The notes beneath the pieces were generated by a model, which was not told where the DNA came from, did not search any database, and was given only the letters and a program-made list of their open reading frames with translations. 64,000 nucleotides of DNA from Massilia sp. H-1. Lineage in GTDB: Bacteria > Pseudomonadota > Gammaproteobacteria > Burkholderiales > Burkholderiaceae_D. A program made the position numbers and the translations under genes. This document shows positions 1-64,000 of this stretch, in pieces; the first letter of the stretch is position 1, and the number at the start of each line of letters is the position of its first letter. The stretch spans positions 5,146,001 through 5,210,000 of the forward strand of contig CP087969.1 in the NCBI GenBank assembly GCA_024703915.1, read 5' to 3'.

Positions 1-187
1 GGATCATCGGCGCGGGCGGCAACGTGGGCGCGGTGGCAGCCGCTTCCTCATGAAAGGCACCGGCAATATCCAGCAGACGCTCACGATCCTCGCGGTCCTG
101 GTGCTGCTGTCGGCACTGTGCGCGATCGCCGTGCGCCTCTCGGTAGCCGCCGAATCGGCGCTTACCGCCAACAACGCAATCGCTTAA
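1..187 (+). CDS. Nitrate/nitrite transporter, C-terminal end (partial)
   Basis: This is the last part of an inner-membrane MFS transporter of the nitrate/nitrite porter (NNP) family; the gene starts before the window. The readable tail has the family's GAGGNVGAVAA loop, a KGTG motif and one last hydrophobic helix (about 80-150) before a TAA at 185-187. The frame changes near 41-46: the family expects Ala-Gly-Phe there, which needs GCCGGC, while the sequence reads GCCGC. The TAA is followed by AGGAGA and nirB starts 11 bp later, so the transporter and the nitrite reductase genes are very probably one operon that imports nitrate and reduces it to ammonium. Family assignment rests on a short stretch plus the context. 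Confidence 0.75.
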   Translation, partial: DHRRGRQRGRGGSRFLMKGTGNIQQTLTILAVLVLLSALCAIAVRLSVAAESALTANNAIA

Positions 188-197
188 GGAGAGCAGC

Positions 198-2729
198 ATG
201 AAGATCATCGTCATCGGCCACGGCATGGTGGGCCATAAATTCCTCGAGTCGCTCGGCGGCAGCACTGTGCCAGGCATGGAAGTGACGGTGCTGTGCGAAG
301 AGCCGCGCGCGGCCTACGACCGGGTCCACCTGTCCGAATTCTTTGCCGGTAAATCGGCGGACGACCTGTCGCTGGTGCCGCCCGGCTTCTTCGACAACGG
401 GAACATGCTGCTCAAGCTGAACGCGCGCCGTGGCGGTGGACCGCGCGGCCAAAACCGTCACGGTCGGCAGCGGCGAGGTGCTCAGCTACGACAAACTGGT
501 GTTCGCCACCGGTTCCTATCCTTTCGTGCCGCCCCTGCCGGGCAAGGAGCGCAAGGATTGCTTCGTCTACCGCACCATCGAGGACCTGGAAGCGATGCTC
601 GAATGCGGCAGCCGCGCCAGGACCGGGGTCGTGATCGGCGGCGGGCTGCTCGGCCTGGAATGCGCCAAGGCCCTGCGCGACATGCAGCTCGACACCCACG
701 TGGTCGAATTCGCCCCGCGCCTGATGGCGGTGCAGGTTGACGACAGCGGCGCGCGTGCTGCGCGCCAAGATCGAAGACCTGGGCGTGACCGTCCACACGC
801 AAAAGAACACCCTCGAGATCGTCGACGGCGAAACCGGCACCCACCGCATGCGCTTTGCCGACGGCAGCCATCTGGACGCGGACATGATCGTGTTCTCGGC
901 CGGGATCCGCCCGCGCGACGAACTGGCGCGCCAGTGCGGCCTGGTGGTCGGCCAGCGCGGCGGCATCTCGATCGACAACAGCTGCCTCACCTCGGACCCG
1001 GACGTGTACGCGATCGGCGAATGCGCGCTGTGGAACGGGCAGGTATTCGGCCTGGTGGCGCCGGGCTACGACATGGCCCGCGTGGCCGCGCGCCATCTGC
1101 TGGGCGAGCAGGCGGCCCAGTTCAACGGCGCCGACATGAGCACCAAGCTCAAACTGATGGGCGTGGACGTGGCCAGCATCGGCGACCCGCACGGCGTGGC
1201 GCCGGGCAGCCGCTCCTACCAGTTCACCGACGAGCGCAAGCAGGTCTACAAGAAGATCGTGGTCTCGGAGTGCGGCAAGTATCTGCTGGGCGGCGTGATG
1301 GTGGGCGACGCGGCCGAATATGGCACCTTGCTGCAGATGATGCTCAACAAGATCGAACTGCCGGAAGCGCCGGAATTCCTGATCCTGCCGCAAAGCGACG
1401 GCAAGGCGAAACCGGGACTGGGCGTGGACGCCTTGCCCGACAGCGCGCAGATCTGCTCCTGCAACGACGTGTCCAAGGGTGCCCTGTGCGCGGCCGTGTG
1501 CGGCGGCGCCGTCACCATCGGGGAGCTGAAAAGTGCTACCTGCGCGGGCACCACCTGCGGCGGCTGCGTGCCGCTCGTCACGCAGGTGATGAAGGCCGAA
1601 ATGAAGAAGCAGGGCATGGCCGTCAACAACCACATTTGCGAACACTTCCCGTATTCGCGCCAGGAGATTTTCCACCTGGTGAAGGTCGGCCACATCAAGA
1701 CCTTCGCCGACCTGCTGGCCGAGCATGGCAAGGGCCTGGGCTGCGACATCTGCAAACCGGTGGCGGCCAGCGTGCTGGCCTCGACCTGGAACGACTTCGT
1801 GCTCAAGCCCGAACACGCGAGCCTGCAGGATTCGAACGACTACTTCCTCGGGAACATCCAGAAGGACGGAACCTACTCAGTCGTGCCGCGCATGCCGGGC
1901 GGCGAAGTGACGGCCGACGGCCTGATCGCGGTCGGCATGGTGGCCAAAAAATACGGCCTGTACACCAAGATTACGGGCGGCCAGCGGGTCGACCTGTTCG
2001 GCGCCCGCGTCCGAGCAGCTGCCGGTGATCTGGGAAGAACTGATCGCGGCCGGTTTCGAATCCGGGCACGCCTACGGCAAATCGCTGCGCACCGTCAAAT
2101 CGTGCGTCGGTTCGACCTGGTGCCGCTACGGCGTGGCCGACAGCGTGGGCTTTGCGATCGCGCTGGAGAACCGCTACAAGGGCTTGCGCACGCCGCACAA
2201 GATCAAGTTCGGCGTGTCCGGCTGCACCCGCGAGTGCGCCGAAGCGCAAGGCAAGGACGTGGGCCTGATCGCCACCGAAAAAGGCTGGAACCTGTACGTG
2301 TGCGGGAACGGCGGCATGAAGCCGCGCCACGCCGAGCTGATCGCGTCCGATCTGGACGAGGCGAGCGTGGTGCGCTACATCGACCGCTTCCTGATGTTCT
2401 ACACCCGCACCGCCGACCGCCTGCAGCGCACCAGCGTCTGGCGCGACAACCTCGAAGGCGGTCTCGATTACCTGAAATCGGTGATCATCGACGACAAGCT
2501 GGGACTGGCGGCCGACCTGGAACGCGACATGCAGCACGTGGTCGACACCTATGCCTGCGAATGGAAAGCGGCCGTCAACGATCCGGCCACGCGCCAGCGC
2601 TTCCGCCACTTCGTCAACAGCGACGCCCAGGACCAGAACGTGGTCTTCATGCCCGAGCGCGGCCAGATCCGCCCGGCCACGGTGGAAGAACGCAAGCGCG
2701 TCATCCCGATTGCCATCAAATCAGCCTGA
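198..2729 (+). CDS. nirB: Nitrite reductase (NADH) large subunit
   Basis: Cytoplasmic siroheme enzyme that reduces nitrite to ammonium with NADH together with NirD. Order of domains: FAD/NAD-binding disulfide-oxidoreductase fold (residues about 1-390), two BFD-like [2Fe-2S] segments (CSCNDVS near residue 418 with CAGTTCGGC near 448, and a second Cys pair near 515), then the ferredoxin-like and siroheme/[4Fe-4S] domains with CVGSTWCRYG (about 635) and SGCTRECAEA (about 675). The length, about 843 residues, is normal for NirB. ATG 198 follows AGGAGA. The frame breaks three times (near 412, 755 and 2008); each is explained by loss of one GC from a GCGCGC-like run. No essential cysteine is missing. 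Directly followed by nirD. Confidence 0.95.
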
Positions 2730-2739
2730 GGAGAACCCT

Positions 2740-3087
2740 ATGCACCGCGATATTCAATTCGACAGCTGGACCGCCGTTTGCTCGCTCGACGAGATTGTCC
2801 CCAACACGGGCGTGTGCGCCTTGCTGGACGGCGAACAGGTGGCCGTGTTTCATGTGGCCGATGCCGAGCAGCGCGTCTACGCCATCGGCAACTACGATCC
2901 GAACAGCGGCGCGGCCGTGATCTCGCGCGGCCTGGTGGGCAACCTGGGCGAACGCATCGTGGTCGCTTCGCCCATCTACAAGCATCACTTCGACCTGCAG
3001 ACGGGCGAATGCCTGGAAGCGCCGGAAAATTCGGTGGCGATCTACCGCACCCGGATCGAAGGCGGAAAGGTATGGGTCGGGGCATGA
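2740..3087 (+). CDS. nirD: Nitrite reductase (NADH) small subunit
   Basis: Small Rieske-fold partner of NirB, 115 residues, intact in one frame. The fold is recognised from VCALLDGEQVAVFHV, YAIGNYDP, the PIYKHHFDLQTG stretch and the C-terminal IEGGKVWVG. As usual for NirD, the Cys/His cluster ligands of true Rieske proteins are absent, so it is structural and not a redox protein. ATG 2740 has a GAGGAG ribosome site ten bases upstream, overlapping the nirB stop. Its TGA (3085-3087) overlaps the ATG of the next gene as ATGA, which indicates translational coupling within the nitrate assimilation operon. Confidence 0.95.
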   Translation: MHRDIQFDSWTAVCSLDEIVPNTGVCALLDGEQVAVFHVADAEQRVYAIGNYDPNSGAAVISRGLVGNLGERIVVASPIYKHHFDLQTGECLEAPENSVAIYRTRIEGGKVWVGA

Positions 3088-4324
3088 TTCCCGTCCCGGT
3101 CAGGCAGTCGCTGGTCGTCATCGGCAACGGCATGGCTTAAGCATGCGCACGGTCGAGGAGCTGCTCAAGCTCGCGCCCGAGCTTTACGACATCACCGTGT
3201 TCGGCGCCGAGCCGCACGGGAACTACAACCGCATCCTGCTCTCGCCGGTCCTGGCTTATGACAAGTCGATGGACGACATCATGATCCACACCCGCCAGTG
3301 GTATGCCGAGAACGGCATCACGCTGCATGCGGGCGATCCGGTGGTGCACATCGACCGCCGCTTGCGGCCTGGTGCGCTCCAAATCGGGCCGCGAAGTCTG
3401 GTACGACCGGTTGCTGATGGCGACCGGTTCGACGCCGTTCATCATTCCCGTCCCCGGTCACAAGCTGCCGGGCGTGGTCGGTTTTCGGGATGTGAACGAT
3501 GTCGACACCATGCTGGCCGCGGCCCAGCGCGGCGGCCACGCGGTCGTGATCGGCGGCGGCCTGCTCGGGCTGGAAGCGGCCAACGGCCTGCAGCGGCGCG
3601 GCATGGACGTGACCGTGGTGCACGTGACCGACAGCCTGATGAACATGCAGCTCGATAAGCCAAGGCATCGGCCCTGCTCAAGCAGGCGCTCGAGTCGAAG
3701 GGCTTGCGCTTCATGCTCGATGCGCACACCAGCGAGATCGTGGGCGACGCGCACGTGACTGGCGTGCGCTTCAAGGATGGCAGCGAGCTGAAGGCCGACC
3801 TGGTGGTGATGGCGGCTTGGCGTGCGTCCGAATGTCGCGCTGGCCCAGGAAGCGGGCTTGCACTGCGAGCGCGCGATCGTGGTCGACGACACCTTGCAAA
3901 CGTACGATCCGCGGCGTGTACGCGGTCGGCGAATGCGTGCAGCACCGCAGCGCGACCTTCGGCCTGGTGGCGCCGATCTGGGACCAGGCCAAGGTGTGCG
4001 GCGCCCACCTGGCACAGAAAGGCCACCGCCGCTACGTCCAGAGCGCCACGCCGACCAAGCTGAAAGTGACCGGGGTCGACCTGTATTCGGTGGGCGACTT
4101 CATCGGCGGGGAGGGCAGCGAAGACCTGGTGCTGCGCGATCCGCGGCGTGGCGTCTACAAGCGCCTGGTCCTGGCTTAAGCAATCGCATCATCGCACAAG
4201 GGTACTGTATGGCGATGTGCAGGACGGGCCATGGTACTTCGGCCTGATCCAAAACCGCACCGATATTTCGGCAATGCGCAGCCGCCTGCTGTTTGGCGAA
4301 GCCCTTTGCGCCCAGGCTGCATAA
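3084..4324 (+). CDS. FAD/NAD(P)-dependent oxidoreductase, NirB N-domain-like
   Basis: A protein of about 410 residues matching only the flavoprotein part of NirB: VVIGNGMAG at the N-terminus (first FAD loop), ATGSTPF, the VVIGGGLLGLEAANGL NAD-binding loop near residue 155, and YAVGECVQHR near 280. It has no [2Fe-2S] and no siroheme domain. Sitting between nirD and nasA, it is probably the NADH-oxidising electron-transfer subunit for the nitrate reductase (NasB/NasC-like role; inference). It begins with ATG overlapping the nirD stop. At least five breaks are seen; those near 3136, 3658, 3812 and 4178 restore the family sequence when the altered motif is read as GCCGGC (for example GNGMAGMRT and LAGNRII). 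Confidence 0.85.
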
Positions 4325-4337
4325 CACGGAGCTGACT

Positions 4338-7029
4338 TTGAACTGTTCACCCATCCCCCTTGCCGTCAAAAGCACCTGTCCTTACTGCGGCGTGGGCTGC
4401 GGCGTGACCGCCACGCCGCTGCCGGACGGCGCGATCGCCATCATCGATGATCAGAGCCACCCGGCCAACGTGGGCTTACTGTGCGTCAAGGGCGCCGCAC
4501 TGGGGGAGACCATCGATTTGGAGGGACGCCTGCTGCATCCGACGCTGCGCGAAGACGGAGCGCTGCGGCAGGCAACATGGGACGAGGCGCTCGATCGCGT
4601 CGCGTCCGGGCTGCGGGAGATCGTCGCTGAGCACGGGCCGGATGCGGTGGCATTCTACGTATCCGGCCAGTTGCTGACCGAGGACTACTACGTGGCCAAC
4701 AAGCTGATGAAAGGCTACATCGGCAGCGCCAACATCGACACCAATTCGCGCCTGTGCATGTCGTCCGCCGTGGCTAAGCCACAAGCGCGTTCGGCGCCGA
4801 TCTGGTGCCCGGCAATTACGAGGACTTCGACCAGGCCGACATGATCGTGCTGGTGGGCGCCAACAGCGCCTGGTGCCACCCGATCCTGTTCCAGCGCATC
4901 GCGCGCCTGAAAGAAGCGCGGCCCGAGGTGCAGGTGGTGGTCATCGATCCGCGCCGCACCGCCACCTGCGAGGTGGCCGACCTGCACCTGCCGGTCAAGC
5001 CGGGTACCGACGTCTGGCTGTTCAACGGCCTGCTCAGCTACCTGGCGCGCGAAGGGCCGGTGGACGCAGGCTTCGTCGCCACCCATACCGCTCTAGCCTG
5101 GAGGCGACGCTGGCGGCGGCCGACATCACGGTCGCCGAAGCGGCCGCCAAGTGCCGGGTCGACCCGGCCGATCTGCTGCGGTTCTACCAGCTGTTCGCGG
5201 CCAAGCGCAAAGTGGTGACCGGGTTCTCGCAGGGCGTCAACCAGTCCTCGGCTCTAGCACCGACAAAGTCAACAGCATCATCAACTGCCATTTGCTCACG
5301 GGCCGCATCGGCCAGCCGGGCATGGGGCCGTTTTCGCTGACCGGCCAGCCGAATGCGATGGGCGGGCGCGAAGTGGGCGGCCTGGCCAACATGCTGGCCG
5401 CGCACATGGACTTGCCGGACCCCGGCCACCGCGCGCTGGTGCAGGAATTCTGGCGCTCGCCGCGCATCGCCGACAAGGGCGGCCTGAAAGCGGTCGACCT
5501 GTTCCAGGCGATCGAAGCGGGCAAGGTCAAGGCGGTGTGGATCATCGCCACCAATCCCATGGTCAGCCTGCCGGACGCGCACCAGGTCCAGCGCGCTGGA
5601 GCAGTGCGAGCTGGTGATTTGCTCGGACATCATCGGCAACACCGACACCAATGCCTTCGCCGACGTGCTGCTGCTTAGGCGCTGGGCTGGGGCGAAAAGG
5701 ACGGCACCGTCACCAATTCCGAACGCCGCATCTCGCGCCAGCGGGCCTTTTGCTTACGCCCCGGGAGAGGCGCGCGGGACTGGCGCATCCTGTGCGAAGT
5801 GGGCCAACGGATGGGCTTTGACGGCTTCGATTTCGCGCACGTGGGCGAGGTGTTCGACGAACACGCACGCCTGTCCGCCTACCGCAACGACAGCAGCGGC
5901 GTGGCGCGCGTATTCAATCTGGCGGGCCTGTCCGGCATGGACCGGCGCCAGTACGACCAGCTCGAACCGGTGCAGTGGCCGGTGACGGCGCGCGGGAGCA
6001 GCACGGCGCGCCTGTTTGCCGACGGCCGCTTCGCCCATGCGGACGGCAAGGCGCGCTTCGTGCCGACCGCGCCACGCGCGCCAGCCCACGCCACCGACAG
6101 CGAGTATCCGCTGGTGCTCAACACGGGCCGGGTGCGCGACCAGTGGCACACCATGACCCGTACCGGGCGCGCGCCGCGCCTGGCCGATCACACGGCCGAA
6201 TCGTTCATCGACATGCATCCGCAGGATGCGCTGCTGTGCGGTGTGCGCGAGGGCGAGCTGGCGCGTGTCGAGCGCCTGGGGCGCGATGGTGGCGCGGGTG
6301 CAGCACGGCGGCGGCATCGCGCGCGGCGGCGTGTTCGTGCCGATTCACTGGAGCGGCCAGACCGCGTCCGATGCGCGGGTCGGCACGCTGGTCAATCCGG
6401 CCGTCGATCCGGTGTCGGGCGAACCGGAATTCAAGCATACGCCGGTGCGGGTGGAGCGCTTTGGCGTGGCCTGGCACGGCTTTGTTCTGAGCCGCACCGA
6501 GCTCTCGCTCGAGGCGGTGGCGCACTGGACGCGGGTGCAGGGACGGGGCTTTGCGCGCTACGAGCTGGCCGGGCGCAAGGCCGTGAGCGAGCGCGGCGCC
6601 TGGGCGCGCGCTGCTGGGCGTGCACGACCCGGACGCGGACTGGCTCGACTACGAAGACCGCAGCGAAGGCGTGTACCGCGCCGTGCATGTGGTCGGCGAG
6701 CGCATCGAGCAGTGCATCTTCCTGTCGCCGCGGCCGGACTTGCTTGCAGGGCCTGGCTGGCGAGCCTGTTCGCCAAAGAGCAGCTGAGCATGGCCGACCG
6801 GGCCGGGATGCTGGCCGGGCAGGCGCTCGGCATGCGCGCCGATACCGGGCCGACCGTCTGTTCCTGTTTCGGCGTGGGACGCAACACGATTTGCGACGCG
6901 ATCCGCGACCAGGACCTCAAGACGGTGCCGGAAGTGACGGCCTGCGTGAAGGCGGGCGGCAATTGCGGCTCCTGCATTCCCGAAATCAAAGTCATCCTGC
7001 TCGAAACGCGGGTCCGCGCGACAGCCTGA
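4338..7029 (+). CDS. nasA: Assimilatory nitrate reductase catalytic subunit
   Basis: Cytoplasmic molybdopterin enzyme reducing nitrate to nitrite. The N-terminal [4Fe-4S] motif CPYCGVGCG is at about residue 14 and its last Cys in LLCVKG near 47; then the bis-MGD domains (SRLCMSSAV, VQVVVIDPRRT, GQPNAMGGREVGG, IIATNPMVSLPD), the MGD-binding C-domain (TGRVRDQWHTMTRTG), and a C-terminal BFD-like [2Fe-2S] segment (CSCFGVG near 840, CGSC near 876), as in the longer NasA forms. About 897 residues. TTG 4338 fits best: it follows the previous stop (GGAG upstream), while ATG 4293 would overlap that gene by 30 bp. Many breaks occur: motif-type near 4772, 5092, 5253, 5675, 5750; GC loss near 4788, 5594, 6288, 6608. 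Confidence 0.93.
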
Positions 7030-7079
7030 CATTCTGATATTATTTCCGCATCGAATCGCGCGCAGGCGCTGGAGCGGAC

Positions 7080-7295
7080 ATGCTGGATAAAATCGGATTC
7101 GGGTGCTGCATCGTCGGCGCCCTGATGGCCGTGGCAAGCTTTATCTTCCCGGGCAAGCACTTGCTGGTCTCGGGCATCTTCCTGTTCGTGCTGGGCTGGC
7201 TGTTGCAGCGGATCAGCCGGGCCAATGCCGCCAACGCCGATTCCTCGCTGGGCGAGGCCGTGGTCGACGTCCTGTCGGACGTCGACCTCGACTGA
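7080..7295 (+). CDS. Small two-helix membrane protein
   Basis: An intact 71-residue protein I cannot assign to a named family. Residues about 7-27 and 28-47 are two hydrophobic segments separated by a short loop with GKH (SFIFPGKHLL), so it is predicted to sit in the inner membrane as a hairpin. The C-terminal third is polar and acidic (ends VDVLSDVDLD). The gene lies 50 bp after nasA, but its start is preceded only by a weak GGAGCGGAC, so co-transcription is possible but not shown. It converges with phnA, whose stop lies 6 bp further on. Confidence 0.6.
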   Translation: MLDKIGFGCCIVGALMAVASFIFPGKHLLVSGIFLFVLGWLLQRISRANAANADSSLGEAVVDVLSDVDLD

Positions 7296-7301
7296 CGGGC
7301 G

Positions 7302-7643
7302 TCACACTTTCTTGACGAACTCCGTCTTCAGACTCATGGCGCCAAATCCATCGATCTTGCAATCGATGTCATGGTCGCTGTCGACCAGGCGGATGTTCTT
7401 GACCTTGGTGCCCATCTTGACGGTGCCGCCGCCGCCTTTCAGTTTCAAATCCTTGATGACCGTGACGGTGTCGCCGTCCTGCAGGATATTGCCCGCCGCA
7501 TCCTTGTAGACGCGCGCCTCGTCGTCGGCAGCCTGGGCGGCCGTCGTGCTCCACTCGTGGCCGCATTCCGGGCACACCAGGTTGCTCCCATCCTCGTAGG
7601 TGAATTCGGATGCGCATTGCGGGCAGGGAGGGAGAGTACTCAT
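7302..7643 (-). CDS. phnA: PhnA/YjdM family zinc-ribbon protein
   Basis: Intact 113-residue protein of the PhnA (YjdM) family. The N-terminus carries a zinc ribbon (CPQC near residue 8, CPEC near 25), and the remainder is the family's beta-barrel domain with [22 protein letters not shown] and the ending [10 protein letters not shown]. Despite the old name, members are not phosphonate enzymes in most bacteria and the cellular role is not established. It stands alone, with a 169 bp spacer to the divergent FeeM-like gene, and shows no frame breaks. Confidence 0.9.
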
Positions 7644-7812
7644 TGATGTTTCCTAGTAGAAAAATGGTAAATGATCAGCTTCCAAAGCGGAAACTGATAG
7701 TTCTTTGCGTAAACAGATGGGGAAAAGTGTGTTTCCTCAAAGCTTCATTATTTCCCTCGGGATACATAATGTCTTCACGGTCAAGCCGTTCAATTTCCCC
7801 GAGGAGCAAGCC

Positions 7813-8610
7813 ATGAACCACACACAACCATCGACCATCGCCCGACGCCTGATGGACCATGTGGCCCGCGTTCAAGATGAACGTGAGCGCGAGCACGCCA
7901 AATCCATTGAACGGTTGCCTTTCACGATCCGCCGCGTGCAAACGCACGAACAGTTGTCGAAAGCGGTGGCGATCCGGCACAAGGCTTACGCGCGCCATAT
8001 TCCGGAGTTCGCCAAGATGCTGGCCTTGCCGGAACAGAGCGATTTCGACAGCGATACCGTTATTTTACTCGCTGAGTCCAAGCTGGACGGCTCGCCGCTG
8101 GGCAGCGCCCGGCTCCAGACCAATGCCCACCAGGCGCTGCACGTGGAAGAATCGCTGCGCCTGCCGCAATGGCTGCAGGGCAAGCGCCTGGCCGAAGTGA
8201 CCCGCCTCGGCATCGAGGAAGGGCGCATCGGGCGCCTGGTCAAGGTGGCGCTGATCAAGGCGTGCTTCGATTATTGCGAACAGGAAGGGATCGACTGGGC
8301 CGTCGTGACCGGCCGCACCCCGATCGACCGCCAGTACGAGCAACTGCTGTTTTCGGATGTGTTCGAAGATAAACAAGCTGTGCCCTTGCGCCACGTCGGC
8401 AATATCCCGCACCGGGTCATGGCGTTCGAGATTGCTACCGGCGAAGCGCGCTGGGAGGCGGCCAAGCACCCGCTGCTGGGCTTCTTCCGCCACACCCGCC
8501 ATCCCGATATCGACCTGTCCACCCGTGTCCGCGGCCTCGTCCGGCGCGGTGCGCAGGGGGCGGTCGCGCGCCAGGCAATCGGGCCGACCTTCGGGCTGGT
8601 GGCGGCATGA
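7813..8610 (+). CDS. N-acyl amino acid synthase-like protein (FeeM family)
   Basis: A 265-residue protein with a GNAT/autoinducer-synthase fold like FeeM, which joins long acyl chains from acyl-ACP to an amino acid. Visible signs: an N-terminal helix, then FTIRRVQTHEQL, the AIRHKAYARHIPEF stretch that in AHL synthases and FeeM holds the conserved Arg, the acidic DFDSDTVILLAESK strand, GSARLQTN, and EVTRLGIEEG. This last resembles the ExxRxxI region of LuxI-type enzymes. The tail (RVRGLVRRG) is basic. ATG 7813 has GAGGAG nine bases upstream; 7705 lies in-frame but lacks a ribosome site. No frame breaks. The product and the amino acid used cannot be told from sequence. Confidence 0.75.
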   Translation: MNHTQPSTIARRLMDHVARVQDEREREHAKSIERLPFTIRRVQTHEQLSKAVAIRHKAYARHIPEFAKMLALPEQSDFDSDTVILLAESKLDGSPLGSARLQTNAHQALHVEESLRLPQWLQGKRLAEVTRLGIEEGRIGRLVKVALIKACFDYCEQEGIDWAVVTGRTPIDRQYEQLLFSDVFEDKQAVPLRHVGNIPHRVMAFEIATGEARWEAAKHPLLGFFRHTRHPDIDLSTRVRGLVRRGAQGAVARQAIGPTFGLVAA

Positions 8611-8770
8611 CAACACCGGGCATGACCTGGCAAGGCGAACAAGGTATCCTGTGAGAATGAATACCGCCTAGTCAGCATACAATGGCGGCTCATCTCTTGC
8701 TGTCTGGATTGTCCGTTTATGTCATTGCAGAGCGTCTCTTCGGGCGCGCCGCTCCTGGCGCGCGCACATC

Positions 8771-11691: not shown

Positions 11692-11695
11692 GGCC

Positions 11696-15713: not shown

Positions 15714-15744
15714 TTCCAGTGCAAAAAGGGGGCGTCAGCAGGGT

Positions 15745-20542: not shown

Positions 20543-20543
20543 C

Positions 20544-53734: not shown

Positions 53735-53749
53735 GCGAGCCCCCAAAAA

Positions 53750-53850
53750 CAATCGGGGTCAGACCTCAATAAAAAAACATTTCAGAATCGGGGTCAGACC
53801 TCAATTCTGAAATGTTTTTCTATTGAGGTCTGACCCCGATAGTGGAATAT
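53750..53850. repeat. Palindromic repeat element, second copy
   Basis: Two direct GGGGTCAGACCTCAAT units (53755 and 53790) and one inverted unit ATTGAGGTCTGACCCC (53822-53837). ATTTCAGAATCGG and CTGAAATGTTTTT between them add more pairing, giving a long stem loop. Same family as 28121-28262. It lies between the recD and pbpG stop codons, so both copies in this window are in convergent gene ends. Confidence 0.8.
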
Positions 53851-53854
53851 TTTT

Positions 53855-54787
53855 TTAGTGGCGGCGGCGCTGGACCAGTTTGACGTGGCGGGTCTTGGCG
53901 CGGCTGGACTTGATGATGGGGCTGCTCGCGCGCCAGGATCGGGCTGCGCGCACGCACGCGGCTGTGCAGAACGGGCCACGACCGGCGCTTCTTCGCCGGA
54001 AATGAAACGGCGGATGTTGAGCGCGTCCATGATGCGCGTCGAGCTGGCCTTGGCGTTGAGCAGCACCAGGGTCGCATTCTTGCTTAAGCCGATTTGATCT
54101 GCATGATCAGGCACTTGCCCGCTTCTTCGGTATAGCCGGTCTTGGACAGGCCGATTTCCCAGCCCTTGGCACCGACCAGGCGGTTGGTGTTGCGGTATTC
54201 GACGTTGCGGCCGTTGATATTGATGAAGTCGCTCGACTCGGTCGTGATCTGGGCGATCTGCGGGTAGGTCGAGGCGGCCGTTGCCATCTTGATCAGGTCT
54301 TGCGCGGTCGAGCGGTTGTTCGGGGACAGCCCGGTCGGCTCTTCGATGACGGTATTGGTCATGCCCAGCGCGGCAATCTTGGCCCGCACGGCTGCCTTGA
54401 AGCCGACCGGCCCGCCATTGAAGGTGCGCGCCAGCGAGGCGGCGGCGCGGTTGTCGGACGACATCAACGCCAGGCGCAGCACATCGGCCCGCGAAATATG
54501 GGAGCCGACCGGCACGCGCGAGGTGCTGTGCTTGACGACGTCCACGTCGCCTTGCTCGATGGCGATCAGTTCGTGCATGTCCTGGTTGGCGTCGAGCACG
54601 ACCATGGCGGTCATCAGCTTGGTCAGCGAGGCGATCGGGACGATCTCAGCTTAAGCATTTTTTCCAGCAAGATCTTGCCGGTGTCATTCTCGACCACCAG
54701 CACCGACGAGGAACCGAACGGCACTGCCGCCACCGCAACCGCAGTGGAAATCGACATCAGTACCGATGCGATGAATTTCTTGATCAT
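53855..54787 (-). CDS. pbpG: D-alanyl-D-alanine endopeptidase (PBP7/8 type)
   Basis: About 310 residues; S11-family peptidoglycan hydrolase in the periplasm. A signal peptide (MIKKFIASVLMSISTAVAVAA) is followed by SSSVLVVEN, the SxxK box ASLTKLMTAM, the SxN box MSSDNRAAASLA and the KTG box SKTGYTEEAG: all three active-site motifs are present. The basic C-terminus (KTRHVKLVQRRRH) may bind the cell wall or membrane. ATG 54787. Breaks near 54650 and 54086 are altered GCCGGC (Met-Pro-Ala-Glu and Ser-Ala-Gly-Lys expected), and one lies near 53925. The TAA at 53855-53857 is inside an A/T run next to the repeat. Confidence 0.9.
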
Positions 54788-55088
54788 GTGATCCTATCTT
54801 GTATTGCAAGGGTTCAAAGTCGGGGCGCCACCGGGGGCTGCGCGGGGCTTGAATCGCTGTAGCTATAGAGCAACTACTATAGGACGAAGATATCATCATC
54901 GACCCTTCGTGTCTACGTCGCACGGAACAAAAGCAGGCTGAAGGAGAGAACTTCCAACAAACATCACGGCGTTTACGCCGAAATTTTGCATATTTGAAAG
55001 CATATAGACGATTTGGCGAGATTGCCTCGCTGTCCATATGGCTGTGAGGAAACGTCCCCGGCAGGCGCCAGGGACGCTGATGATGCGC
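54788..55088. other. Intergenic region between pbpG and sbp
   Basis: About 300 bases. It contains the pbpG promoter side and the 3' end of the sulfate-binding gene. No gene is seen; TTTAGCCG-type or other known boxes were not found. AT content is higher near 54850-55000. Confidence 0.3.
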
Positions 55089-56118
55089 TTACTTGTTCTG
55101 GTAAATCTTGTCGAACTCGCCACCGTCGTCGAAGTGCTTCTTCTGGGCTGCTTTCCAGCCGCCAAACACGTCATCGACCGTGAACAGGGTGATCGGCTTG
55201 TAGTTGGCGGCAAACTTCTTGGCCACCGCTTCCGAGCGCGGACGCAGGAAGTGCTTGGCGCCGATGGTCTGGCCTTCTTCCGAGTACAGGAAGTTCAGGT
55301 AGGCGGTCGCCTGTTTGCGCACGCCGCGCTTGTCGACCACCTTGTCGATCACCGCGACCGGGGATTCGGCCAGGATCGAGACCGCCGGGTACACGACTTC
55401 GAAGTTGTCGCCGAACTCGGTGCGCACCATCTGCACTTCGTTTTCGAAGGTGACCAGGGCGTCGCCGATCTGGCGCTGGGTAAAGGTGGTGGTGGCCGCC
55501 CGGCCGCCGCCGTCGAGCACGGGCACGTTCTTGAAGATCTTGCCGACCAGCTCACGCGCTTGCGCCTCGTTGCCGCCTTTTTTCAGGACCGAGCCCCAGG
55601 CCGCCAGATAGGTGTAGCGGCCGTTGCTTAAGCGGGTCTTGGGATTCGGAATCACCACGCTCACGCCGGGCTTGGCCAGGTCGTCCCAGTTCTTGATCTG
55701 CTTCGGATTGCCTTTGCGGACCAGGAATACCATGGTCGAGTAGTAGGGCGCCGCGCCGTTCGGGAACTTCTTGGCCCAATCGGCCGCCACCAGGCCGCGC
55801 TCGGCCAGCATGTCGATGTCGTTCGCCTGGTTCATGGTCACGACCGAGGCTTCCAGGCCGTCCGCCACCGAGCGCGCCTGCTTGCTCGAACCGCCGTGCG
55901 ATTGCTTGACCGTCACGGTTTCGCCGGTCTTCTTCTTCCAGTCGGCAATAAAGGCCGGGTTGATGTCCTTGTAAAGCTCGCGCGCGACGTCGTAGGAGAC
56001 GTTCAGCAGCTCGGTCTCGGCCGCCTGGACCGACAACGGCAGGGCAGGCAGCGCCCAAGGCGAGGGCCAGCAGCCAGCGGCGCGGGGCGGAAGCAGGGGA
56101 AGTGTTGTTAGTTTGCAT
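55089..56118 (-). CDS. sbp: Sulfate ABC transporter substrate-binding protein
   Basis: About 342 residues, periplasmic. A signal peptide (RRWLLALALGAALPALPLSV, ending before Gln-Ala-Ala-Glu when a break near 56053 is corrected) leads to LLNVSYDVARELYKDINPAF, VKQSHGGSSKQARSV, the typical ANDIDMLAERGLV and YYSTMVFLVRKGNPK, PVAVIDKVVDKRG and FGGWKAAQKKHFDDGG. The Ser-His-Gly-Gly-Ser-Ser-Lys-Gln and Asp residues form the sulfate or thiosulfate pocket. Near 55628 the sequence reads KTRLSNGRY where the family has KTSGN; this is an in-frame GCTTAAGC. ATG 56118. No permease or ATPase genes are adjacent. Confidence 0.92.
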
Positions 56119-56324
56119 ATGTTCGCTTGACCTGACTATTGTAGGATCGGACGCCCATGGTCTAAAATCCGCAGCCGAAACGGAAGTACTGTTTTGTCAT
56201 ATGCTTAGATATGTTCGTGCGTGGGTACAACAACGCGAGATCGCTGATTGTTGTATAGTCGTGTTGTGCGCTTGAAAAGCGGCAATAGCTTTTTCTTGCC
56301 GTTATGGTTATTAGTGAGTTTGAC

Positions 56325-56855
56325 ATGGGTATTCAGATTCGACCTGCAGCACTCCACGATGCGTTTGACGCTTGCCACGTCCTGCGCCGGTCGATTACCG
56401 AATCGTGCGCCATCGATCATCAGCAGCAGCCGGACATTCTCCAGTCCTGGCTCGGCAACAAGACCCCCGAAAACGTCGCCAGCTGGATCGCTTCCCCCAG
56501 TAATTACACCCTCGTTGCCGTGCGCGACGGCCAGGTGGTGGGTGTGGCCCTCGTCACGCAGGCGGGCAAGCTGTCCCTTTGCTATTTATTGCCTGGAAGC
56601 GCAACATGCCTAAGCATCGGCAAGGCCCTGCTGCGCGCGGTTGAAGGCCAGGCGCGTGAATGGGGCGTGAGTGTCTTGCGCCTGCACAGCACGGCGACCG
56701 CGCGACTTTTACGCGCAACAACGGTTACGTGCTCACTTACAGAAGAGAAATCCTGTTACGGCGTCGAGTGCGACTTCTTCTGGAAGAAGCTCAATGCCGA
56801 CGCCAGCAACGACCAATCCCAGAGTAAACGTTTCTGCAGCTGTAGCGCGCAGTAG
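56325..56855 (+). CDS. GNAT family N-acetyltransferase
   Basis: About 177 residues. The GNAT fold is seen in IQIRPAALHDAFDACHVLRR, VAVRDGQVVGVALV, the acetyl-CoA loop (HAGIGKALLRAVEGQAREWG when 56608 is read as GCCGGC) and LRLHSTATARDFYARNNGY near the C-terminus. The acceptor substrate is unknown. ATG 56325 fits the fold; ATG 56304 lies in-frame and would add seven residues. Breaks near 56608 (+2), 56700 and 56750. It is divergent from sbp, with about 200 bases between, and followed by the YcbK-like gene. Confidence 0.82.
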   Translation: MGIQIRPAALHDAFDACHVLRRSITESCAIDHQQQPDILQSWLGNKTPENVASWIASPSNYTLVAVRDGQVVGVALVTQAGKLSLCYLLPGSATCLSIGKALLRAVEGQAREWGVSVLRLHSTATARLLRATTVTCSLTEEKSCYGVECDFFWKKLNADASNDQSQSKRFCSCSAQ

Positions 56856-56901
56856 GCATCCTTGCGCTATAGTAGTGTCCTCGCTGTTCACACCGTTTTC
56901 C

Positions 56902-57630
56902 ATGATTTCCCGTCGAGCATTTCTTCAACAAGGCGTCTGCCTTTCCACGCTGGGACTGGTCGCGGTACCGCTGATCGGATGCGCGGCCCCGGCGCCGTCC
57001 AAACCTGTTTCCAAAACCAAAGCCAAGCCCCAGACTGCCGCCAAAGGCAAGAGCGTGCCCGTGCGCAAGCCGGAAGCGCCGCCCGTGGAAGCGCTTAGCC
57101 ACCGGCATGGCGCCGCCCCGATATTTTCGATGCGCAGGCGCTCGATCTCGAATTCTGGCTCAAGCCGCGCACGCTGACCGTGATCCGCCCGCAAAGTGGC
57201 GAGAAAGCGTCGGTCTTGTACTGGAAGGATGGCGAGATCATCGATGCCGCTTATCAGGAACTGTGCCATTTACTGCGCGACGTGAATGGCAAGGAAACGG
57301 CCCCGATCGATCCCAAGCTGTTCGAGACCCTGTGGGGCACCCAGGCATTCATCGCCCGCTATGGCATCGAGCAGCCGCTCGAGATCTTGTCCGGCTACCG
57401 CACCGCCAAGTCCAACCTCAAGCTGATCGAGCAGGGCGTGCTTAGCCGCGCCAGTCGCTGCACATTGACGGCAAGGCCGCCGATATCCGGATTCCCAACC
57501 TGAACGCCGAAGTGCTGGGCGGACTGGTGCGCAGTTTCCGCCAGGGCGGGGTGGGATTTTATTACACGAGGGACCGCGCGGCGGCTGGATTCATGCCGAT
57601 ACCGGCTTGCAGCGCACCTGGAAAGGCTGA
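56902..57630 (+). CDS. YcbK-like M15/DUF882 peptidase, Tat-exported
   Basis: About 243 residues. The N-terminus has a twin-arginine signal (SRRAFLQQG, then a hydrophobic stretch STLGLVAVPLIGCAA; Cys could also be a lipobox). A Lys/Pro linker leads to the DUF882 domain: FWLKPRTLTVIRPQSGE, YQELCHLLRDV, ETLWGTQAFIARYG, LSGYRTAKSN, and the zinc-binding set in SLHIDGKAADIRIP and GGVGFYYTR. In this family His, Asp and a second His bind zinc; SLHIDGKAAD and the WIHADTG end fit. It would cut peptidoglycan peptide cross-links. Breaks near 57097 and 57440 (altered motif) and 57580. ATG 56902. Confidence 0.87.
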
Positions 57631-58065
57631 CGGCCGCGCGCCGCTTCCAGATTTCCTTGGTGAAGGTCTGATCGACCAGGCGCACATCGATCAGTGCGCC
57701 TTTCGCGTAATAGAAGATCTGGCTGATCACGATGTGCTGGGTCGCGGTCGTGATCGTCGCACTGGCGGTGCGCGTGGTCACCGGCCCGTGCACGCCCATG
57801 GGGATCTTCAGCGGCTGGTCCTGGCGCGCGGGCGAGACTTCAATCTTGGTGGCGGCGGGGTCGACGGGGTAGCTCGCGGTCTTGAACGGCTTGCTTCAGC
57901 CTTGTCGACCAGGGTGACAAGCAGCAGATTGCCTGACTGGCTAGTCTGGCCGCAGTTGCGCTTGCAGGGCTCGGCCCCCTTTTCGAAGGTGAGCGGCACG
58001 GCGGCGAAAACGGCCGGGGCGGCCAGCGCGCTGATCAGCGTGCACAGATAGATGAGGCGTTTCAT
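57591..58065 (-). CDS. Secreted hypothetical protein
   Basis: About 155-160 residues that I cannot place in a family. A Sec signal peptide (MKRLIYLCTLISALAAPAVFA) precedes AVPLTFEKGAEPCKRNCGQ with two Cys spaced for a small disulfide loop, then NLLLVTLVDKAEA, and in another frame KIPMGVHGPVTTRTASATI and HIVISQIFYYAKGALIDVRLVD, i.e. mostly beta strands. The frame changes near 57890 and again near 57645. The end is uncertain and overlaps the convergent YcbK-like gene. ATG 58065. Location in the periplasm or outside is predicted from the signal peptide only. Confidence 0.6.
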
Positions 58066-58153
58066 GGGATCCAGGTTAACATTGCCGATGGCAGTTTGTT
58101 AACCTTAACCGCATTGCCATGATTGGTCAAACCGCATCGCACGGCATGGAATC

Positions 58154-58233
58154 TGGTGCGGGGCCCGGGAATCGAACCCGGTTATCAGTCAGCGGCATAC
58201 CGTTGCTGGGCTTTACCAATAAGCGAGCCTCGC
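58154..58233 (-). tRNA. tRNA-like element, anticodon not assigned
   Basis: On the minus strand a 7-base acceptor stem (GCGAGGC with GCCCCGC, one mismatch) encloses a D-arm (GCTTATTGGTAAAGC) and a perfect T-arm (CCGGG-TTCGATT-CCCGG), and CCA follows the discriminator A. The middle does not fit: the CAGC/GCTG stem holds an 11-base loop, and ACTGATAA stands where the variable loop should be. Total length is 80. It may be a true tRNA damaged by sequence error, or a degenerate or pseudo-tRNA. I do not name an amino acid. Confidence 0.45.
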
Positions 58234-58307
58234 ACCTTCACTGTAGTATAAGAATGCTCATACACAATAAAAATTTATCAATAACAAGATAAATTATTTC
58301 TCAGTAT

Positions 58308-58520
58308 TTATTCGTAGTGATAGGGTTTCACCGGCACCGCATCCGCGCGCTGCCTGTCGAGCTCGCCAAAGTCCACTTTGCGGTCCCACCAGCTGTACCA
58401 GGCGCGCATGCGTTCTTCCTCCAGCGCCGGACGGGCGCGCAGCAAGTCGCCGAGGAACTGGTCGGCCTCGGAAACGTAGCCGCCCGCGAAGGGACGGTAG
58501 CGTTCGGCTGGACGTGACAT
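58308..58520 (-). CDS. DUF3460 family protein
   Basis: Intact protein of 70 residues. The family pattern is present: an N-terminal basic/aromatic part (ERYRPFAGGYVSEADQFLGD) followed by LLRARPALEEERMRAW and the C-terminal WWDRKVDF, with the Trp-Asp-Arg/Lys block that is typical. These small cytoplasmic proteins are common in Burkholderiales and have no known function. ATG 58520. The gene is free of frame breaks. It lies between the tRNA-like element and a divergent hypothetical gene. Confidence 0.8.
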   Translation of the reverse strand: MSRPAERYRPFAGGYVSEADQFLGDLLRARPALEEERMRAWYSWWDRKVDFGELDRQRADAVPVKPYHYE

Positions 58521-58630
58521 GGGATCTTCCTTCTCTTCCTCAGACCACCGGCAGGCGCCGGGGTTCGCCATGTACGCGGCCGCGGAAATGCCGTAGCATG
58601 TTGCCCTAACCGCATATTCGCCAGGAAGCA

Positions 58631-59053
58631 ATGAATCACGACCCCACGCAGCCCGCCGCACCGCGCTTTCGCCCGGTGCCGTGGACGGAGCTGCTTACGC
58701 CCCAGGATGTCGAACTCTGGATCGAGGAGCACAATCGCAGCCTGATGGAGCACATCGGCCCGCAGGAAACCGGCGTCGGCGTCTGCTTCACCCTGGCCGA
58801 AGGGGGCGACATTTACCTGCAGACGACGGCCGACGCCGTCATTCTCGACGTCGAACCGGACGCGCAATGGATCGCGCCCCTGATCGTGGCCGCCACCCAG
58901 ACGCCCGAGCCGCCATCCCAGATCTGGGTCTTGCCGGACGATAAACTGGTCCAGCTGATCATCGGGCTGTCCAGCCTGGTGGCCAGCACGACCTTGGTCA
59001 GCGGACACAATTTTGGCGGGGGCGAAAATTGTCCTATTCGCGCTAAACTCAGC
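58631..59053 (+). CDS. Hypothetical protein
   Basis: About 130-140 residues, not recognised. After a Pro-rich start (MNHDPTQPAAPRFRPVPW) comes LLTPQDVELWIEEHNRSLMEHIG, (shortened), VGVCFTLAEGGDIYLQTTADA, IVAATQTPEPPSQIWVLPDD and the segment KLVQLIIGLSSLVASTTLV. It looks like a soluble alpha/beta protein. ATG 58631 follows AGGAAGCA. As written the frame runs on into the next gene to 59269; a nearer end at about 59053, where another frame has TAA, is more likely, so the 3' end is uncertain. Confidence 0.5.
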
Positions 59054-59076
59054 TTTTCATCACGATCACACTGCCC

Positions 59077-59891
59077 ATGCCGACTTCGTCCCGCCGCCGT
59101 CTCCTGCAGCTCGCCGCTGTGTTGTTCTCCGCAACGCTGGCCATGCTTAAGCCATGGCCGCCGACCTGCTGGCCACGGCCAAGGCGCGCGGCACGCTCAA
59201 GATCGCGCTGGAAGGGACTTACCCGCCGTTCAATTTCAAGGACAAGAGCGGCCAGCTCGACGGCTATGACGTGGACGTGGCCAAACTGATTGCTTACCGC
59301 CTCGGCCTCAAGCCCGAATTCGTCACCACCGAGTGGAGCGCGATCCTGGCTTAGCCTGGCCTCGGGCCGCTACGACGTCATCATCAGCCAGGTGGGCATC
59401 AATCCCAAGCGCGAGCTGGCCTTCGATTTCTCGATTCCCTATACCTATTCCAGCCCCCAGCTCATCGTGCGCAAGAACGAGACGGCCAAGTACCTCGCCC
59501 TGTCCGACCTCAAGGGCAAACGGGTGGGCGTGGGGCAGGGCAGCGTGTTCGAACAGCAGGCCAAGGCCGTGCCCGGCATCGAGGTCAAGAGCTATCCTTC
59601 GGCCGCCGAAAACCTGCAGGATCTGGCGTCCGGGCGGATCGACGCCGCCCTCAACGACAGCCTGATGGTGTCCTACCTGCTGAAAAACGCCAAGCTGCCG
59701 ATCGCGGCCAGCACCCGGGTCGGCGCCATCGAGCGCACTGGCGCGGCATTCAAGAAGGGCAATCCCCAGTTCAAGGCCGCCATCGACAAGGCCTTGCGTG
59801 ACGCCTAAGCAGCGACGGCTCCCTCAAGGCGATCGCGGTCAAGTGGTTCGGCCACGACGCCAGCAATCCCGCGTCGGTCGCACCGAACTGA
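59077..59891 (+). CDS. Amino acid (cystine-type) ABC transporter substrate-binding protein
   Basis: About 268 residues, periplasmic, SBP family 3. The signal peptide (LLQLAAVLFSATLAMPAMAA when 59147 is read as GCCGGC) is followed by GTLKIALEGTYPPFNFKD, DGYDVDVAKLIAYRLGLK, ASGRYDVIISQVGINPKRE, FDFSIPYTYSSPQLIV and KGKRVGVGQGS. The Tyr-Pro-Pro-Phe-Asn and Arg residues form the amino acid site; overall it is most like FliY/TcyJ. Breaks near 59147, 59350 and 59805 are all altered GCCGGC. The TGA overlaps the permease ATG (TGATG), so the genes are coupled. The ATPase gene is not in the window. Confidence 0.88.
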
Positions 59892-60561
59892 TGCCGTTCA
59901 TGGAGCTGTTCGAGCTGCTGCTGCGCGACGCCGCGCCCGTCATGCTCAAGGGGGCCGAAGCTACACCTTGATGTTCGCGCTGGCCTCGATGGTGGGCGGG
60001 CTGGCGCTCGGCTTCCCGGCCGCGATCCTGCGCATGTCGCGCTGGGCCGTGCTGCGCTGGCTAAGCCGACCTGTACGTGAGCATGATGCGCGGAACCCCG
60101 CTGCTGGTACAAATTTTCGTCATCTATTACGGCTTGCCGAGCATCGGCATCGAATTCACGCCCGTCACGGCGATGTGCTGGCGCTGTCGCTCAATTCGGG
60201 CGCCTATCTGTCGGAAAGCCTGCGCGGCGCGATCCAGAGCATCAGCCCCGGCCAGTGGCGCGCCAGCTACAGCCTGGGCCTGTCGTACTGGCAGACCCTG
60301 CACCACATCGTGCTGCCCCAGGCGCTGCGGGTGGCGGTGCCGTCCATGGGCAATACCCTCATCAGCCTGATCAAGGATACCTCGCTGGTGTCGGTCATCA
60401 CGGTGACCGAACTGATGCTTGCCACCAAGGAGGTGATCGCCACCACCTTCCGCCCGCTGCCCCTGTATATCGCCGCCGCCCTCGTGTATTGGTGCCTGAG
60501 CCTGGCTTTCGAGGCGCTCCAGCGGCGCGCCGAACGGCGTCTGAACCGCGCGCACCGCTGA
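59891..60561 (+). CDS. Amino acid (cystine-type) ABC transporter permease
   Basis: About 222 residues, inner membrane, HisM/GlnP family. Helices at [20 protein letters not shown] and further downstream; the EAA loop is [20 protein letters not shown], followed by [22 protein letters not shown], (each shortened), where the family's Ala-Leu-Gly and Pro-Gln-Ala are found. It pairs with the preceding binding protein, with YecS/TcyL as nearest type. Breaks near 59960, 60060 (TGGCCGGCC expected: Trp-Pro-Ala-Asp) and 60170. ATG 59891. Confidence 0.88.
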
Positions 60562-62829: not shown

Positions 62830-62839
62830 AAGCAAAAAA

Positions 62840-62863
62840 CCTCGCACGGAGCGAGGTTTTTTT
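62840..62863 (+). terminator. Rho-independent terminator
   Basis: CCTCGC (62840-62845), loop ACGGA, GCGAGG (62851-62856), then seven T; a run of six A on the other side makes it work in both directions. It lies 11 bases after the GGDEF-EAL stop and 15 bases before the ETF-QO stop. Confidence 0.92.
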
Positions 62864-62877
62864 GGGTAGGGGAAGCT

Positions 62878-64000
62878 TACATCCCTGGATAATTCGGTCC
62901 GCCGCCGCCTTCCGGCGTCACCCACACGATATTCTGGGTCGGATCCTTGATGTCGCAGGTCTTGCAGTGCACGCAGTTCTGCGCATTGATCTGCAGACGG
63001 TCTTCACCGGCATCGGACTTGACGAACTCGTACACCCCGGCCGGGCAGTAGCGCGCTTCCGGACCGGCATACTTGGCCAGATTGACCGCCACCGGCACGC
63101 TGTTGTTCTTGAGCGTGAGGTGAATCGGCTGGTCTTCGGCGTGGTTGGTATTCAGAAATGAACACCGACGACAGACGGTCGAAGGTCAGCTTGCCGTCCG
63201 GCTTAGGATAGGCGATCGGCGCATAATTGGCGGCCGGTTTCAGACATTCATGGTCGCCGTAGTCGCGGTGCAGTGTCCATGGCGCTTTGCCGCGGAAGAT
63301 CATCTGGTCGATACCGGTCATGATCGAACCGAGCACCAGTCCCTTGGACAGCCAGGGCTTGACATTGCGCGCCACGTGCAGTTCTTCGTGCAGCCACGAT
63401 TGCTCGAACGCTGCCGGGAATGCCGTCAGTTCGTCGTGCTGGCGCTGCTCGCCCAGCGCGCCGAAGGCCGCTTCGGCCGCCAGCATGCCGGTCTTGATGG
63501 CCGCGTGCGAACCCTTGATGCGGCTCATGTTCAGGAAGCCGAGCATCGCAGCCGATCAGGGCGCCGCCCGGGAACACCAGCTTCGGCAAGGCTTGCAGGC
63601 CATGCCGATGGTGATGGCGCGCGCCATACGAGATGCGCTTGGCGCCCTCGAAGAAGGTGCTGATCGCCGGGTGCGTTTTGTAGCGCTGGAATTCTTCGTA
63701 CGGCGACAGGTAGGGGTTTTCATACGACAGGCCGATCACGTAGCCGACCACGACCTGGTTGTTTTCCAGGTGGTACAGGAAGGAGCCGCCGTAGGTGTCG
63801 TGCTGGAGCGGCCAGCCGGTGGTGTGGATCACCAGGCCCGGCTTGTGCTTGGCCGGATCGATTTCCCACAGTTCCTTGATGCCGATGCTGTACGACTGCG
63901 GGTCCTTGCCCTTGTTCAGGTCGTACTTGGCCATGAGCTGCTTGCCCAGGTGGCCGCGCGAGCCTTCCGCGAACAGCGTGTACTTGGCGTGCAGTTCCAT
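62878..64000 (-). CDS. etfD: Electron transfer flavoprotein-ubiquinone oxidoreductase, C-terminal part (partial)
   Basis: The 3' two thirds of ETF-QO; the 5' end lies outside the window. This membrane-bound flavoprotein passes electrons from ETF to ubiquinone. Seen here: [20 protein letters not shown], (shortened), [59 protein letters not shown] in part, and the C-terminal [4Fe-4S] ferredoxin-like segment with [17 protein letters not shown] and ending NYPGM. Breaks near 63625, 63550 and 63155. The TAA at 62878-62880 follows the bidirectional terminator. Confidence 0.93.

What the first reader, a model, noticed from the sequence alone, without database searches (positions are those of the whole stretch)
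1..64000. GCCGGC is systematically replaced by TTAAG-like strings across the window
At about fifty places where the protein family demands GCCGGC, the sequence reads GCTTAAGC (3135, 4176, 18584, 51583), GCTTAGGC (5675, 14372, 27373), GCCTAAGC (10850, 37797), GCTAAGCC (4772, 60061), GCTCTAGC (5090, 5252), GCCAAGGC (3658), GCCTAGC (9446), GCTAGGC (10498) or GCCGAGC (48247). The change adds 0-3 bases and mostly creates a stop. Essential genes on both strands are hit, so real mutation is not credible. The simplest reading is basecalling error at a methylated palindrome; the assembly then records the methylome of the strain. Around a dozen sites are intact (for example 9158, 34393, 35094, 42538, 49670, 52857); most of these have only G or C next to the motif, while altered ones usually have T before or A after it, with exceptions.
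Basis: partly seen in the sequence, partly recalled or inferred. Interest (0 to 1): 0.85.

Follow-up and report, generated by a model that had tools for sequence, protein, structure and literature searches.

The report
Nanopore misreads at probable NaeI-type sites
The odd TTAAG-like strings are almost certainly not real DNA but reading errors of a nanopore sequencer at a short motif, GCCGGC, that this cave bacterium probably methylates with its own restriction-modification system, so the published genome carries an unintended trace of its DNA methylation and many falsely broken genes.

Summary
GCCGGC occurs 1,645 times in the 5.84-Mb genome, 11-13% of what 16 congeners predict. GCTTAAGC occurs 1,773 times, against 13-41 in the congeners and at most 165 in 391 other family genomes. 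Aligned to one relative (295 kb), 11 of 211 GCCGGC sites are intact and 46% change length, the highest rate of any hexamer with 60 or more sites.

Two finds support the artefact reading. The genome length equals, to the base, that of Massilia sp. H-1 (CP087969), an R9.4.1 MinION / Guppy 5.0.11 / Racon / Medaka assembly with no short reads described. Outside the window lies the one C5-cytosine methyltransferase found, beside Vsr and a NaeI-family endonuclease; NaeI cuts GCCGGC.

Methylation was not measured; both restriction-modification genes are split into two frames as printed. About 57% of the missing sites are not accounted for by the four main strings. The kind is known (Dcm, Listeria motifs); I found no report of this motif.

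The parts
3135..59152 (.). GCTTAAGC, 21 places: 3135, 4174, 11330, 13608, 17102, 18566, 18700, 19559, 23885, 32910, 37681, 42061, 45111, 45367, 47176, 51579, 53262, 54082, 54649, 55626, 59145
   Evidence: Exact string search. 157 found against 1.2 expected from relatives in 484 kb. The commonest relative string at these places is GCCGGC, 26 of 78 aligned pairs.
5673..59810 (.). GCTTAGGC (12: 5673, 14371, 16618, 18529, 27371, 30425, 37934, 38083, 39334, 42895, 45264, 48819) and its reverse complement GCCTAAGC (10: 10850, 18769, 20668, 26426, 37795, 40287, 45985, 49549, 56608, 59803)
   Evidence: 120 against 3.0 expected in 484 kb. Commonest relative string GCCGGC, at 11 of 42 and 6 of 38 pairs.
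4773..60067 (.). GCTAAGCC, 8 places (4773, 19941, 26406, 38806, 40848, 43008, 49916, 60060), and its reverse complement GGCTTAGC, 2 places (25564, 59348); part of the GCTAAGC/GCTTAGC class
   Evidence: GCTAAGC class 142 against 10.9 expected in 484 kb. Relatives read GCCGGCC at 9 of 29 pairs for GCTAAGCC; no GCCGGC in 8 pairs for GGCTTAGC.
5090..47085 (.). Rarer forms: GCTCTAGC 5090, 5251; GCCTAGC 9444, 39010; GCTAGGC 10498, 25326, 40197, 47079
   Evidence: GCCTAGC class 71 against 13.3 expected in 484 kb. At these window places relatives read GCCGGC at 1 of 8, 3 of 5 and 1 of 16 pairs, so single places are weakly supported.
9160..52862 (.). Intact GCCGGC, 16 places: 9160, 13970, 14411, 14430, 16946, 22927, 23129, 34392, 35082, 42539, 44354, 44628, 46352, 49661, 51654, 52857
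   Evidence: flanks. In the window 7 of 54 aligned pairs are GCCGGC in relatives; in the 295-kb alignment 11 of 27 intact sites (41%) are GCCGGC in G015, within the range of other palindromes.

Best explanation
The window is from Massilia sp. H-1 (RCAM05339, CP087969), a nanopore R9.4.1 assembly without short reads. The strain carries a NaeI-type restriction-modification locus: a C5-cytosine methyltransferase, a Vsr mismatch endonuclease and a NaeI-family endonuclease. The methyltransferase most likely puts 5-methylcytosine on both strands of nearly every GCCGGC. The basecaller had not learned this modified motif, so the shifted pore signal was called as GCTTAAGC, GCCTAAGC/GCTTAGGC, GCTAAGC, GCCTAGC and rarer strings, usually 1-2 bases too long. 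The error is systematic, so 183x coverage, four Racon rounds and Medaka did not remove it. Some 87-89% of GCCGGC sites were lost and many reading frames broken. Shown: depletion, replacement strings, correspondence of the places, presence of a NaeI-type locus, and (through exact length and genus) the sequencing method. Inferred: that GCCGGC is methylated in this strain, that the mark is 5mC, that it causes the miscalls, and that the basecalling model lacked it.
For: GCCGGC 1645 against 9544-23450 in 16 congeners, with an ordinary control count. GCTTAAGC 1773 against 13-41 and at most 165 in 391 other family genomes; TGCTTAAGCA 362 against at most 22 in 397 other genomes of the phylum. GCCGGC is the most depleted 6-mer against the lowest of three relatives, CTTAAG the most enriched. 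Aligned to G015, 11 of 211 sites are intact (5.2%, the lowest of the palindromes with 20 or more sites; next CGTACG, 9.5% of 21) and 46% change length, against 0-10% for the other palindromes; the next unrelated hexamers are AAAAAA and AAAAAG at 18%. Fewer GCCGGC than CGGCCG, and at least two GCTTAAGC, in each of 20 spread 20-kb stretches. Paper with identical genome length, MinION R9.4.1, Guppy 5.0.11, no short reads described, 8,116 coding sequences; listed completeness 48.22. One C5 methyltransferase locus found; NaeI E 8.6e-48, Vsr E 1.7e-28, C5 methylase E 1.5e-47; solved NaeI 1ev7/1iaw E 7.5e-26; NaeI site given as GCCGGC. In G199 a 324-residue methyltransferase, 58% identical over 239 residues, also lies beside NaeI. 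Precedents: Dcm motifs made about 70% of consensus errors in a K. pneumoniae benchmark; Listeria GCAGC and GCTGG.
Against: No reads were examined, so methylation is not shown. As printed, the methyltransferase and NaeI genes each fall into two frames. None of the main GC-flanked strings lies in the stretches read around the two breaks, though an ATCTTAGGG lies close to the NaeI break; whether the breaks are other sequencing errors or real is open. C5 methyltransferases as such are common: 9 of 16 congeners have one. Only one genome here combines NaeI with known nanopore data, so a motif effect without methylation is not formally excluded. The four main string classes account for about 462 of 1067 missing sites. 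Only 65 of 154 G000-specific frame-breaking indels in the window lie near a listed string (9.5 expected at random), so other errors contribute much.
Confidence: 0.92

Rival explanations
1. Basecalling error at GCCGGC that comes from the sequence itself (R9.4.1 / Guppy 5.0.11 / Medaka on GC-rich DNA), without any methylation.
For: The assembly has other, plain nanopore-like errors: A homopolymers (AAAAAA 18% length change) and contraction of long GC-dinucleotide tracts. GC-rich hexamers GCCCGC and CCCGCG change length at 13%. Only one NaeI-bearing genome with known nanopore data was seen.
Against: The effect peaks sharply at the exact hexamer that NaeI recognises: 46% for GCCGGC against 10% for ACCGGC and for CCGGCC outside GCCGGC; part of that 10% may be places where G000 itself has GCCGGC (inference). 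A NaeI-type locus is present in this genome and matched in none of 16 congeners.
Confidence: 0.05
2. The same artefact, but caused by a different mark on GCCGGC (for example N4-methylcytosine) or by another enzyme than the one beside NaeI.
For: One N6/N4-type methyltransferase match exists elsewhere in the genome (G000:C1:2924431-2925039); the printed C5 methyltransferase gene is split into two frames.
Against: The C5 gene is the only one found and lies beside NaeI, as it does in G199. The target of the N6/N4 gene was not examined.
Confidence: 0.04
3. Real sequence: a mutational or editing process rewrote GCCGGC in the living genome.
For: The strings are in the deposited assembly at 183x and in all 20 spread stretches sampled.
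Against: It would break genes at thousands of places; the listed completeness is 48.22 and 65 frame-breaking indels specific to this genome lie near such strings in the window alone. The signature is seen in none of the other genomes searched.
Confidence: 0.005
4. Restriction avoidance: GCCGGC was lost by selection because the strain has NaeI.
For: Restriction-site avoidance is an established phenomenon (recalled), and the strain has a NaeI-type gene.
Against: The two other NaeI carriers in the family keep GCCGGC (10276 and 15954, above their controls 5843 and 10790). Avoidance would not give length changes at 46% of the sites aligned to G015.
Confidence: 0.005

Closest known systems
Dcm-motif (CCWGG, 5mC) consensus errors of ONT basecallers (Wick et al. 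2019, PMC6591954; passages seen)
   Same: Native methylation at a fixed palindromic motif gives systematic consensus errors; about 70% of errors fell in the motif for the then current ONT basecallers on a K. pneumoniae genome.
   Different: Different motif (GCCGGC) and probable enzyme (NaeI-type); here length changes of 1-2 bases are frequent and 87-89% of the sites are lost. Methylation not measured here.
Modification-mediated errors in Listeria ONT genomes, motifs GCAGC and GCTGG (Modpolish paper, PMC10687267; passages seen)
   Same: Errors centred on one motif per lineage that survive Medaka polishing and point to lineage-specific modification; R9.4.
   Different: There counted as mismatches and tested by amplification and against hybrid assemblies; here many length changes, inferred from the assembly alone.
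NaeI type IIE restriction-modification system (solved NaeI 1ev7, 1iaw; PF09126)
   Same: Endonuclease family match, adjacent C5 methyltransferase, depleted motif equal to the NaeI site.
   Different: Genes split into two frames as printed; a Vsr gene sits between the methyltransferase and NaeI genes (whether the original NaeI system has one was not checked); specificity not assayed.

Membership tests
Modification-mediated nanopore assembly error | Assembly made from nanopore reads without short-read correction | tested here: met
   Genome length 5,836,689 equals strain RCAM05339 in PMC9933642; MinION R9.4.1, Racon and Medaka, no short reads described. The identity of the record rests on length and genus.
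Modification-mediated nanopore assembly error | Errors concentrated on one exact motif | tested here: met
   GCCGGC 46% length change, highest of the hexamers with 60 or more sites; most depleted 6-mer. It is not the only error class: 89 of 154 frame-breaking indels in the window lie away from the listed strings.
Modification-mediated nanopore assembly error | The motif is modified in native DNA | not testable with these tools
   Raw reads SRR21050826 are named in the paper but not held here.
Modification-mediated nanopore assembly error | Errors vanish with amplified DNA or short reads | not testable with these tools
   No such data held.
NaeI-type restriction-modification system | NaeI-family endonuclease | tested here: met
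   PF09126 E 8.6e-48 and 1e-12 in two frames; 1ev7_A E 7.5e-26.
NaeI-type restriction-modification system | Adjacent C5-cytosine methyltransferase | tested here: met
   PF00145 E 1.5e-47 and 4.9e-11, the only C5 methyltransferase locus found; same pairing in G199. That it is the cognate enzyme is inferred.
NaeI-type restriction-modification system | Unbroken reading frames | tested here: not met
   Both genes fall into two frames as printed; the cause is not settled because the assembly is error-ridden.
NaeI-type restriction-modification system | Recognition of GCCGGC by this strain's enzymes | not testable with these tools
   Inferred from family membership and from the error motif.

The most novel reading that the evidence does not exclude
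Uncorrected nanopore assemblies are a fossil record of methylomes: from the FASTA alone one can read which motif a strain methylates and roughly how completely (here 87-89% of GCCGGC sites lost), with no raw signal, and the matching methyltransferase can then be found in the same genome. The recognition sites of unknown methyltransferases could be mined from public nanopore-only assemblies in this way.
Probability: 0.55. Interest if true: 0.5.

Novelty: new member of a known kind. Interest (0 to 1): 0.35.

Why it matters
By the congener ratios roughly 11,000-13,500 GCCGGC sites are missing from a public complete genome, so its gene content (8,116 coding sequences in the paper; listed completeness 48.22), pseudogene calls and k-mer composition should not be trusted. 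It also shows that a probable methylated motif, and the family of the restriction-modification system, could be guessed from the assembled sequence alone. Raw reads are public, so the reading can be checked directly.

Tried and rejected
NgoMIV-type endonuclease (PF09015): no match in 17 genomes, but its control genomes were silent too, so absence is not shown. The controls were silent for NaeI (PF09126) as well, but that search rang in three family genomes.

23S rRNA as an essential-gene test: uninformative. In the 18 relatives' loci examined (three partial G016 pieces left out) every GCCGGC lies outside the 23S match, and the five G000 loci have neither GCCGGC nor GCTTAAGC inside it; other strings were not searched there.

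A worry that the intact GCCGGC sites are themselves miscalls, raised by 7 of 54 pairs in the window, was not confirmed in the larger alignment (11 of 27).

No other genome with the signature was seen among 391 other family genomes or, with the longer pattern, 397 other phylum genomes; both are samples.

Paper searches for a report of GCCGGC errors, or of NaeI with nanopore data, showed none (open-licence PubMed Central only). Of their listings I read PMC9933642 whole and passages of PMC6591954, PMC10687267, PMC4081073, PMC12871193 and PMC7653180; the rest I saw as listings only. PMC4081073 prints the NaeI site as GCC|CCG, against GCCGGC in PMC7653180.
Full report
What was checked. The window is G000:C1:5146001-5210000 of a single 5,836,689-base contig with listed completeness 48.22. 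By one window protein the nearest named records are Massilia, best Massilia sp. CF038 at 94%.

More than chance. GCCGGC occurs 1,645 times in G000; the reversed control CGGCCG occurs 8,570 times. In 16 congeners GCCGGC outnumbers its control 1.46- to 1.76-fold; in G000 the ratio is 0.19 (ratios computed). That leaves 11-13% of the expected sites. GCTTAAGC occurs 1,773 times against 13-41 in the congeners and at most 165 in 391 other family genomes; TGCTTAAGCA occurs 362 times against at most 22 in 397 other genomes of the phylum. In 464 kb of G000 against 400 kb of three relatives, GCCGGC is the most depleted 6-mer (measured against the lowest relative) and CTTAAG the most enriched. Each of 20 spread 20-kb stretches has 1-13 GCCGGC, 18-51 CGGCCG and 2-12 GCTTAAGC.

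Same places. Against four relatives over the window, 1.2% of 322 GCCGGC pairs are identical in G000, against 14-65% for 15 other hexamers (14 palindromes and GGCCGG); length changes at or beside the motif occur at 42% against 0-28%. In a larger alignment (295 kb of G000 covered, to G015, mean identity 82%), 11 of 211 GCCGGC sites with matched flanks are intact and 46% change length. The commonest other strings are GCTTAAGC 21, GCCTAAGC 19, GCTAAGC 10 and GCCTAGC 10; others, such as GCCCGC 16 and GCCAGC 12, look like ordinary divergence. An unbiased scan of the hexamers with 60 or more sites puts GCCGGC first; the next that do not overlap it are AAAAAA and AAAAAG at 18%, then GCCCGC and CCCGCG at 13%.

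What is not explained. In 484 kb, 1,067 of 1,211 expected GCCGGC are missing; the four main string classes supply an excess of about 462, so some 57% of the loss goes to forms that I did not resolve. Of 154 frame-breaking indels in the window that are specific to G000 (same net length against all of at least three relatives; wider or less covered clusters dropped), 65 lie near a listed string (9.5 expected at random, maximum 18 in 200 trials). The other 89 lie elsewhere; of the 40 of them printed, several are at GC tracts or homopolymers.

Context. Retention of GCCGGC is 0.110 with G/C on both sides, 0.125 mixed and 0.131 with A/T on both sides. By single base before the motif it runs from 0.095 (T) to 0.183 (A), and by flank pair from 0.04 (G..C, 3 of 74 expected) to 0.26 (A..G, 25 of 97). 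Which wrong string appears depends on flanks more clearly: GCTTAAGC has a T before it at 174 of 314 counted ends, and GCTTAGGC at 85 of 120.

Source of the data. PMC9933642 (whole text read) reports Massilia sp. H-1 (RCAM05339, CP087969), 5,836,689 bp, the same length as G000. It was sequenced on MinION R9.4.1, called with Guppy 5.0.11, assembled with Flye, and polished with Racon four times and Medaka once, at 183x; no short reads are described. It lists 8,116 coding sequences. The link rests on exact length and genus.

The enzyme. The search found one C5-cytosine methyltransferase locus in G000 (PF00145), at C1:3046005-3046978, in two frames; 9 of 16 congeners also have C5 methyltransferases. 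Beside it, in divergent orientation, are a Vsr gene (E 1.7e-28) and a NaeI-family endonuclease (PF09126, E 8.6e-48 and 1e-12 in two frames). The one solved relative found is NaeI itself, 1ev7/1iaw, E 7.5e-26. NaeI cuts GCCGGC. Among 392 family genomes only G000, G199 and G232 match NaeI. In G199 a 324-residue C5 methyltransferase, 58% identical over 239 residues, lies beside NaeI. In G232 a Vsr gene lies beside NaeI, and no methyltransferase was seen among the ORFs of the 3.7 kb fetched. G199 and G232 keep GCCGGC above their controls and have low GCTTAAGC counts (39 and 20), so the enzyme alone does not deplete the site; their sequencing methods are not known to me.

Reading. A methylated GCCGGC unknown to the basecaller gives a consistent wrong signal in every read, which consensus and polishing keep. 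Precedents are Dcm motifs and Listeria GCAGC and GCTGG. In gonococcus, nanopore data showed 5mC at 32 of 33 GCCGGC sites of pilE and pilS, so the motif can be methylated almost fully in nature by another enzyme. Methylation in H-1 is my inference.

Verdict. It is a new member of a known kind of sequencing artefact, with a well-matched candidate enzyme.

Noticed in passing
L149:9936-12518 (G000:C1:3045936-3048518): The methyltransferase and NaeI genes are each split into two frames as printed. None of the main GC-flanked strings lies around the breaks, though an ATCTTAGGG lies close to the NaeI one; cause unresolved.
   Followed up: partly
G000 stretches aligned to G015: Alternating GC/CG tracts of nine or more bases are two bases shorter in G000 at 6 of 15 tracts, and AAAAAA changes length at 18%: probably a second, ordinary class of nanopore errors.
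   Followed up: partly
L149:15181-16305 (minus strand): GmrSD_N-domain gene (PF03235 E 4.4e-24; PADLOC NsnA E 5.4e-43) near the NaeI locus; perhaps a small defence island.
   Followed up: no
G000 sample and window: CTCGAG is two- to three-and-a-half-fold more frequent than in the three relatives; at its 23 aligned window places relatives read GCCGGC in 0 of 84 pairs. Unexplained.
   Followed up: no
G000:C1:2924431-2925039: The one N6/N4-type methyltransferase match (PF01555) found in the genome; its target was not examined.
   Followed up: no
PMC9933642: The paper says barcode 7 was used for both strains; the two assemblies differ by 3,090 bp, and their relation deserves a check.
   Followed up: no
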